From assembly GCA_029379385.1 (NCBI GenBank), contig CM055612.1, forward strand, positions 1,674,001 to 1,738,000: DNA of 64,000 nt, read 5' to 3'. Each line of letters opens with the position of its first letter. Positions within the stretch are counted from its first letter, which is position 1. Position numbers and translations under genes: made by a program. This DNA comes from Quillaja saponaria. Its lineage: Eukaryota; Streptophyta; Magnoliopsida; Fabales; Quillajaceae. The notes beneath the pieces were generated by a model. That model ran no database searches. It worked only from the letters and a program-made list of their open reading frames with translations, and was not told the DNA's origin. Of the stretch, positions 56,276 through 58,617 are shown piece by piece.

Positions 56276-58617
56276 ATGGCTACCTCAGTTTATCATACAA
56301 AGCCCTTTGCCGCCTCAGTTTCTCTGGGTGGTTTCTCCACCATTAGAGGACAGAGCAGAGTTACGGAGAAGAAACATATTACACTACCATCTGTACCATT
56401 GGAGAAGAAGCATCTTACCCTACCATCTGTACCTGGTATTAAATTGCAGCATTGTTTTTCTGTTTTCTACACAAATTCTTGATATTGGTTTAGGTTTCAA
56501 ATTCACAATAGAAGTAGTTAATTTATAAGTAAAATGAATCTGTTCCTTTTGTGACAGAATATATATGAAATGATAAAAATTGTTTAACTTGGGGGAAAAT
56601 GGGTGGTGCAGTGGTTCCGGGGTTACCCGTGTTAGGAAACTTGCTGCAACTAAAGGAGAAGAAACCCTTAACGACGTTCAAGCAGTGGGCTGATATTCAT
56701 GGGCCAATTTACTCGATCAGACTTGGTGATTCGACTGTCATTGTTATCAATTCTGCAGATATAGCCGATGAGGTGAGTATAACTGCCACTGCTCTGCTTT
56801 TTCATGTTCCAGTCCTAGTTTTGCACCTTTAATATAGCAATTTTCCCACTATAAATAGAAGCAGATATATGTACCCGTGGAAATGCTATTCCCATAACAA
56901 AAAGCCTAACATTATTTATTATTTGCATCTATTTCATGTTTTTTATTTTCATTTTTCTTCGTGAAATTCAAGACTATTTCGGCTTCTAATTATCAATCAA
57001 AAATTTGTATGATTTTTGCAGGCAATGGTGACTAGATTTGATTCCATTTCAACAAGGAAGCTTACGAATGCAGTGAAGTTTCTCAGTATGGATGGATGTA
57101 TGGTTGCCACAAGTGACTACAGTGAGTTTCACAAAGCTATTAAAAAACATGCCCTAACAAGCCTTTTGGGACCAACAGCTCAGGTTGATAAACACAACTA
57201 TGTTGAGAAATTACTTTTGTTGCCAAACTCCTCTGATGCTTAATCTTTATAATATTCAGAAGCGACATCGCTGTCACAGAGATGCCATGGTAGATAGTCT
57301 TTCCAGGAAGTTGCATACACATGTGACTACCTCTCCTAATCAGACTATAAATTTTAGGGAACTATTCCGATCGGAACAATTTGGAGTAGCACTGAAGGAG
57401 GTGAGTTCCTTTTTAAATGGAATAATGTATTATGCAGAATAAAATTGCTAGATCTAGTACTTAATTGAATGAAATTTGCAGGCTCTAGGAAAAGATATTG
57501 TCGAACCCATTTTCGTGGAAGAGCTAGGGAGTACTTTGTCAAGAGAAGAAATATTCAAAATTTTGGTGCTTGACCTCTTGGAGGGTGCAATCGAGGTGGA
57601 CTGGAGAGATTTCTTCCCTTACCTGAAATGGATTCCAAATAAGAGTTTGGAAATGAAACTCCAGGGGCTGAATTTCAGGAGAAAAGTAGTGATGAGTGCA
57701 CTTATGAAGGAGCAGAAAAGCGAATAGCTTCAGGAGAGGTAATGTTAAGTAATGCAATTTTAAATCTTCTATGAAGGCTCTGTTGGCTATTGAGAATTTG
57801 ACATAATGTTGTGCTTGTGCTGGACAATGAACATATAACAGGAATTGGATTGTTATTTTGACTACCTATTATCTGAAGCAAAAGAACTAACTGAAGAACA
57901 AATTTCTATGTTGCTGTGGGAGATTATAATTGAGATACCAGATACTACAGTGGTTACAGCAGAATGGGCCATGTTTGAACTTGCTAAAGACCAAAACCGA
58001 CAGAATCGACTCTATCAAGAGCTCCAAAATATATGTGGACATGAGAAGATTACAGAGGAAAACTTGCCTCAGCTGCCATACTTAGGAGCTGTTTTTCATG
58101 AGACCTTAAGAAAGCATACCCCAGTTCCAATAATACCATTCCGATATGTTCATGAAGATACCGAATTAGGAGGGTATCATGTTCCTGCCGGAAGTGAGGT
58201 TGTTTGATATTCATTTTGATCTTAATGTGTTATTCTTTAGCTTTCTTACTATGTAAATATGATTGCCAATTCTGACATGAAATTATGGCACAGATTGCTA
58301 TAAATTTATATGGATGTAACATGGACAAGAATAAGTGGGAAAACCCACAAGAGTGGAAGCCTGAGAGGTTTCTCGACGACAAGTATAATACTGCAGATTT
58401 GTACAAGACGATGGCTTTTGGAGGAGGGAAGAGGGTATGTGCAGGTGCTACTCAGGCAACGTTGTCAGTTTCTGTGGCAATTGGTAGGCTGATTCAGGAG
58501 TTTGAATGGAGCCTGAAAGTAGGAGAGGAAGAAAATGTGGATACTGTGAGCCTCACCACCCACAAGTTACATCCACTACATGCATTCCTCAAGCCAAGAG
58601 ATCAGGATAAAAAATAA
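56276..58617 (+). pseudogene. ent-Kaurene oxidase copy E, short-anchor type, one 1-nt deletion
   Basis: The best-preserved short-anchor copy. Exons: 56276-56435, 56612-56772, 57022-57183, 57260-57400, 57482 to about 57736, 57842-58198 and 58294-58617. Exon 57842-58198 is exactly 357 bases, the sum of exons 6 (162) and 7 (195) of the intact gene. The N-terminus MATSVYHTKPFAASVSLGG goes straight to STIRGQSRVTEKKH without the FSLLLFLFF anchor; TLPSVP is present twice. I-helix EIPDTTV, ExxR ETLR, PERF and haem loop FGGGKRVCAGA are all present. The only lesion seen is one base missing at 57716-57720 (GAGCAGAAAAGCGAA against GAGCAGAAGAAGCGAA), giving TAG at 57725-57727. A product would end near residue 290, before I-helix and haem loop. 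It could be a sequencing error or a young null. Confidence 0.93.

What the first reader, a model, noticed from the sequence alone, without database searches (positions are those of the whole stretch)
56276..56772. KO paralogues with the membrane anchor cut out and a transit-peptide-like N-terminus
Seen: copies at 32829, 43091 and 56276 share with the intact KO the block TKPFA(A/T)SVSLGGFS, but where the intact gene has LLLFLFF before IRG they have a single T. At DNA level TTCTC is followed by CAC instead of about 21 bases, an in-frame 18-base net loss. They also double the linker EKKH-TLPSVP. Known: KO is held in the plastid outer envelope/ER by this helix. Inference: the resulting N-terminus (MATSVYHTKPFAAS..., rich in S/T, with R and K and few acidic residues) looks more like a plastid transit peptide than an anchor. 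The type may have been a soluble or stromal P450 before its copies decayed. This is the most unusual design in the window.
Basis: partly seen in the sequence, partly recalled or inferred. Interest (0 to 1): 0.82.

Follow-up and report, generated by a model that had tools for sequence, protein, structure and literature searches.

The report
Anchorless kaurene-oxidase-like P450 gene copies
Three soapbark-tree gene copies of a membrane-anchored plant hormone enzyme have lost the anchor, and their shared ancestor appears to have stayed a working protein before the copies broke, so it was probably a real unanchored enzyme, though where in the cell it worked is not shown.

Summary
Observation confirmed. 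The window matches Quillaja saponaria: NCBI protein P0007 equals my model of the intact KO at 60518-63619. Three tandem CYP701A-like copies (32829, 43091, 56276) replace LLLFLFF by T, double a linker, have a start about 15 nt shorter, and have lost intron 6 precisely. The copy at 56276 has one frameshift. No lesion is shared, so their common ancestor had an open frame after losing the anchor. Its core then evolved under constraint: E-crown omega 0.354, p = 7e-6 against 1; dead-copy control 0.88. Exons 2-7 diverge at about half the intron rate in two of three pairs. Five of 135 near-invariant KO residues are changed. So a probably active anchorless P450 existed. Its first 30 residues resemble a transit peptide in make-up (0 of 123 measured KOs match, anchors kept or cut), but no localisation predictor was available, the segment shows no clear constraint, and the FFPYLKW stretch is kept. 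Stromal location is unproven; loose membrane attachment seems likelier. No other species' protein matched this N-terminus; a Polygala KO also lacks an anchor. New variant of a known kind.

The parts
56276..58617 (+). E56: anchorless CYP701A-like gene, 7 exons (56276-56435, 56612-56772, 57022-57183, 57260-57400, 57482-57738, 57842-58198, 58294-58617); one 1-nt frameshift in exon 5 near 57718
56276..56435 (+). Exon 1 of E56: MATSVYHTKPFAASVSLGGFS-T-IRGQSRVTEKKHITLPSVPLEKKHLTLPSVP; 18-nt anchor loss, about 15-nt start loss, 36-nt linker doubling
43091..45440 (+). E43: anchorless copy, five single-base frameshifting indels (exon 2, exon 4, exon 5 twice, exon 7)
32829..35141 (+). E32: anchorless copy, 11-nt loss in exon 2 and 2-nt loss in the last exon
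60518..63619 (+). I60: intact anchored KO paralogue, 8 exons, 515 aa, identical to NCBI protein P0007
36538..41780 (+). I36: anchored-type pseudogene (LLFFLFF kept), several frameshifts, haem Cys changed to Gly
46378..49149 (+). I46: anchored-type pseudogene without exon 1, haem Cys changed to Gly
51131..52643 (+). I51: anchored-type pseudogene starting inside exon 3, near-copy of I46
50283..50346 (+). E-type exon 3 fragment (98% to E56)
53782..53845 (+). E-type exon 3 fragment (98% to E56)
25667..26106 (+). Diverged KO-like fragment (matches exons 7-8, 68-77%)

Best explanation
E32, E43 and E56 are the remains of a side branch of ent-kaurene oxidase (CYP701A) seen so far only in Quillaja. Shown by sequence: before the three copies split, the gene had lost its N-terminal helix, shortened its start by about five residues, doubled its Pro-rich linker and lost intron 6; the copies were then broken separately. 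Inferred from selection: the anchorless protein was a folded P450 in use for a time (about 0.11-0.12 synonymous changes per site between E32 and the other two). Inferred mechanism: the catalytic domain kept the KO architecture and worked without the helix, most likely attached only loosely to the plastid envelope or ER through its retained hydrophobic F-G region, oxidising an ent-kaurene-like diterpene with the usual reductase. The changed I-helix (ETSDTT to E(I/V)PDTT) and the long stem suggest a changed substrate or reaction. Import into the stroma by the transit-peptide-like N-terminus is the main alternative.
For: No lesion shared, anchor loss shared. E-crown omega 0.354, LRT p = 7.2e-6; its E32 and A branches 0.269, p = 2.6e-5; control branches of the dead I36/I46 copies 0.88, p = 0.66. 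NG86 on the core: 0.41, 0.26 and 0.28 for the three E pairs. Exons 2-7 differ less than introns: 0.048 v 0.090 (p = 2e-4), 0.045 v 0.099 (p = 3e-6), 0.027 v 0.045 (p = 0.034). 5 of 135 near-invariant KO columns changed, against 3 in P0007, 2 in P0008 and 7 in P0093. FGGGKRVCAG, ETLR, PERF and FFPYLKW kept in all three, no nonsense substitution. E clade groups with P0008 + the P0007 cluster (99/92), stem 0.29. CYP720B4 with its helix removed stayed active in leaves (PMC4688937).
Against: No intact E-type gene was among the listed hits, and transcripts were not searched directly. E43 and E56 differ by single-base exon indels about as often as by intron indels (6 in 1400 aligned exon sites v 4 in 774 intron sites), so one or both may have been dead for much of their separate history. 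The E43 and E56 tips alone do not reject omega 1 (p = 0.31 and 0.076). One pair of plainly dead copies, I46/I51, also gave a low NG86 ratio (0.21 on only 11 changes) and was not in the codon model. The stem from E to I has omega 0.456, so the time around the anchor loss itself is not resolved. A Pro inside the I-helix could be harmful.
Confidence: 0.55

Rival explanations
1. Stromal P450: the rebuilt N-terminus is a true plastid transit peptide, and the E-type worked inside the plastid, where ent-kaurene is made, perhaps with ferredoxin as electron donor.
For: First 30 residues: S/T 9, 8, 8; D/E 0; K/R 3 in E56, E43, E32. 0 of 123 other KOs measured meet S/T at least 8, D/E 0 and K/R at least 3, and 0 of 123 when their own most hydrophobic 19 residues are cut out. 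No more amphipathic than shuffles, so not mitochondrion-like. Rice OsKO1 is reported in plastid and endomembranes (PMC7758035, passages). A CYP720B4 with a modified anchor plus transit peptide was active.
Against: Limits were set after seeing the sequence. The block TKPFATSVSLGGFS is inherited from anchored KO. N-terminal changes show no clear constraint. FFPYLKW is kept. Transit peptide plus fully anchor-deleted CYP720B4 gave no product.
Confidence: 0.28
2. Dead from the start: the anchor loss was itself an early step of decay, and no anchorless enzyme ever worked.
For: All three copies now carry frameshifts, and the stem is long (0.29).
Against: Constraint on the crown after the loss, no shared lesion among three copies, and the +36, -18 and about -15 nt changes are all in frame.
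Confidence: 0.12
3. E56 is still a working gene and its single frameshift is an assembly error in a tandem array that is hard to polish. (Compatible with the best explanation; not an exclusive rival.)
For: Only one 1-nt lesion in 1562 nt of exon, absent from E43 and E32; all splice sites GT-AG.
Against: No reads were available. The NCBI model P0003 is reproduced exactly by adding an intron at 57531-57664, so the annotated genome has the same base; it is probably the same assembly and so no independent proof.
Confidence: 0.2

Closest known systems
ent-kaurene oxidase, CYP701A (for example Quillaja P0007 and P0008; Arabidopsis KO)
   Same: Same exon layout as I60 but for one intron; 72% and 70% identity to P0007 and P0008; haem, ETLR and PERF motifs kept; inside the KO tree
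   Different: No N-terminal helix, shortened start, doubled linker, intron 6 lost, E(I/V)PDTT in the I-helix
Polygala tenuifolia KO-like A0A3G5AQA4 (P0093)
   Same: Also lacks the helix, cut between the start and RGL; core otherwise full-length; same plant order
   Different: Separate place in the tree, no S/T-rich N-terminus, no doubled linker; one deposited sequence only
Engineered anchor-deleted CYP720B4 (PMC4688937)
   Same: A diterpenoid P450 active without its helix
   Different: Laboratory construct; no product when a transit peptide was added to the anchor-deleted form
Naturally plastid P450s, CYP97 and CYP74 (recalled, not tested)
   Same: Plastid P450s
   Different: Different families; the E-type is a CYP701A

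Membership tests
Cytochrome P450 (PF00067) | P450 domain with the haem Cys loop, ETLR and PERF | tested here: met
   PF00067 precomputed for P0003, the NCBI model of E56; motifs in all three read-through proteins
CYP701A (ent-kaurene oxidase) | Groups inside KO in a tree | tested here: met
   With P0008/P0007 at 99/92 support, 46-row tree; that these proteins are CYP701A is from their names and general knowledge
CYP701A (ent-kaurene oxidase) | N-terminal membrane helix | tested here: not met
   Best Kyte-Doolittle 19-residue mean 0.59 against a median of 2.08 for 106 N-termini; no TMHMM available
[quoted passage not shown]
   Needs expression and assay
Plastid-imported (stromal) protein | Transit peptide recognised and cleaved | not testable with these tools
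   Only make-up could be examined: consistent; no predictor, no import test
Functional gene today | Open reading frame | tested here: not met
   1, 5 and 2 frameshifting indels in E56, E43 and E32; an assembly error in E56 not excluded

The most novel reading that the evidence does not exclude
A lineage of kaurene oxidase converted itself from an envelope/ER-anchored enzyme into a stromal P450 by deleting its helix in place and turning the residual N-terminus into a transit peptide, working on diterpenes where they are made; a plant of another family in the same order (Polygala) dropped the helix independently.
Probability: 0.22. Interest if true: 0.7.

Novelty: new variant of a known kind. 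Interest (0 to 1): 0.42.

Why it matters
KO sits at the handover of gibberellin synthesis from plastid to ER, and its anchor is taken as part of its job. A natural branch that dropped the anchor and was still kept by selection gives a ready test of whether the anchor is needed for activity, reductase coupling or substrate access. It also bears on efforts to move diterpenoid P450s into chloroplasts.

Tried and rejected
Alternative upstream ATG supplying an anchor: none in frame before the first upstream stop in E56, E43 or E32; a separate distant first exon was not excluded. Mitochondrial-type amphipathic helix: not above shuffles. E-type in other species: a search with residues 1-62 of P0003 at E up to 1 returned only P0003 out of 112 candidates. 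Relatives of the Polygala anchorless protein: among the 120 listed of 663 hits, none above 74% identity. The first genomic alignment misplaced exon 1 of the E copies; redone on spliced sequences. A whole-genome search for further E copies could not be done. Literature: eight searches showed no title or abstract start about Quillaja KO paralogues or a natural anchorless KO; one search listed 10 of 41 papers, and subscription papers are not held. Seen: PMC4688937 abstract and Results section; PMC4719081 and PMC7758035 passages only.

Full report
What the window is. The protein search with the E56 copy returned, among its best hits, four Quillaja saponaria proteins. P0007 is letter for letter my spliced model of the copy at 60518-63619. 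P0003 (475 aa) is reproduced exactly from the copy at 56276 if an extra intron, 57531-57664, is cut out of exon 5, which avoids a frameshift. P0006 is a fusion of pieces of E43, I46 and I51. Quillaja is in Fabales.

Anatomy. The cluster holds three anchorless copies (E32, E43, E56), one intact anchored copy (I60), three anchored-type pseudogenes (I36, I46, I51) and fragments. Relative to I60 and P0008, the E copies differ in the same ways. The helix LLLFLFF is one Thr. The start is about five residues shorter than in P0008 and begins at the ATG that P0008 also uses. A 12-residue linker is doubled. Intron 6 is gone precisely, leaving 7 exons. All E introns keep GT-AG ends. No in-frame ATG lies upstream before a stop.

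Decay. E56 has one single-base frameshift; E43 has five; E32 has an 11-nt and a 2-nt loss. None is shared. None of the three has a nonsense substitution once frames are tracked. So the last common ancestor of the three, which already lacked the anchor, had an open frame.

Selection. In one search it gave omega 0.354 for the E crown (p = 7.2e-6 against 1), 0.269 for its E32 and A branches (p = 2.6e-5), 0.456 for the E-I stem (p = 8.5e-6), 0.311 for I60 (p = 0.02) and 0.88 for the dead I36/I46 branches (p = 0.66). The E56 and E43 tips alone do not reject 1 (p = 0.076 and 0.31); the E32 tip does (0.219, p = 0.005). NG86 pairs agree (0.41, 0.26, 0.28), but one dead pair (I46/I51, 11 changes) also gave 0.21. 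Exons 2-7 differ at about half the intron rate in E56/E32 and E43/E32 (p = 2e-4 and 3e-6) and less clearly in E56/E43 (p = 0.034); exon indels in E56/E43 are about as frequent as intron indels. Reading: constrained after the anchor loss, then separate and mostly recent decay.

Kinship. In a 46-row tree the E clade is sister to P0008 plus the P0007 cluster (99/92 for the whole group, 94/83 for the latter), with a stem of 0.29 changes per column against about 0.13 on the path to P0008. So the E-type is probably older than the split of the two anchored Quillaja KOs and changed fast on its stem. Five of 135 near-invariant KO residues are changed, against 3 in P0007 and 2 in P0008. Its I-helix reads E(I/V)PDTT where I60 and P0008 read ETSDTT.

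N-terminus. The first 30 residues of E56/E43/E32 hold 9/8/8 Ser+Thr, no Asp or Glu and 3 Lys+Arg. Of 123 other KO N-termini measured out of 139 proteins held, none meets S/T at least 8, D/E 0 and K/R at least 3, either whole or after cutting out the most hydrophobic 19 residues. These limits were chosen after the fact. The segment is no more amphipathic than shuffles. Among the E copies its variable codons split 5 silent to 9 amino-acid-changing, against 36 to 44 in the core (Fisher p = 0.57), so it shows neither clear constraint nor a clear lack of it.

Other KOs without an anchor. Of 106 N-termini measured out of 120 (the E56 model P0003 among them), only P0093 of Polygala tenuifolia (0.33) lies below P0003 (0.59); the median is 2.08. 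Six further models have fewer than 19 residues before the motif and so no anchor either (P0044, P0063, P0077, P0096, P0100, P0112). I take these as truncated models, which was not tested; P0077 and P0100 share the short start MGST(T/S)LPTVPE. P0093 is a separate branch, and the 120 hits listed in its own search hold no near relative.

Mechanism. Arabidopsis KO is reported at the outer plastid membrane and perhaps the ER, and rice OsKO1 in plastid and endomembranes (PMC7758035, passages). An anchor-deleted diterpenoid P450, CYP720B4, stayed active in leaves; with a transit peptide added it gave no product, while a form with a modified anchor plus transit peptide was active (PMC4688937, abstract and Results section). 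With the FFPYLKW stretch unchanged, I favour a loosely attached enzyme on the cytosolic side over a stromal one, about 0.55 to 0.28, and leave the question open. That FFPYLKW belongs to the membrane-facing F-G region is from general knowledge of P450s and was not tested.

Verdict. The claim that a working anchorless P450 existed is supported by selection evidence. The claim that it was stromal remains a hypothesis.

Noticed in passing
window 58001-58004, 44825-44828, 34531-34534: Intron 6 of KO is precisely absent in all three E copies (present in I60, I36, I46 and I51), suggesting a single precise loss before the E copies split.
   Followed up: partly
window 2002-8135, minus strand: Two N-terminal halves, two C-terminal halves and one further piece of other cytochrome P450s (PF00067), on the other strand from the KO array.
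   Followed up: no
window 35482-35781, 45810-46086, 58954-59288: AT-rich tandem repeats (units of about 36, 72 and 108) a few hundred bases downstream of each E copy.
   Followed up: no
window 57531-57664; 43091-52643: NCBI models P0003 and P0006 look like artefacts: P0003 hides a frameshift with an extra intron, P0006 fuses pieces of E43, I46 and I51.
   Followed up: yes
window 60518-63619: The intact I60 copy departs from other KOs at three near-invariant sites (A123P, G358E, P407H in P0008 numbering) and has CTG for CAG in the haem loop; it may itself be specialised, with P0008 as the ordinary KO.
   Followed up: partly
window 36538-52643: I36, I46 and I51 have lost the haem-binding Cys (VGTG), so they are dead as P450s.
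   Followed up: yes
P0093 (Polygala tenuifolia A0A3G5AQA4): A full-length KO-like protein with a 27-residue N-terminus and no helix, an apparently independent anchor loss in the same order.
   Followed up: partly
P0077 (Corchorus capsularis) and P0100 (unnamed transcript source): Two KO models share a very short start, MGST(T/S)LPTVPE, without an anchor; truncated models or a real short form, not tested.
   Followed up: no
window 23169-23759 (-), 26723-28366 (+), 28282-28791, 30396-30815 (+): B3-domain piece, a leucine-rich-repeat protein with tandem repeats overlapping its 3' end and beyond, and a reverse-transcriptase-type zinc-binding piece.
   Followed up: no
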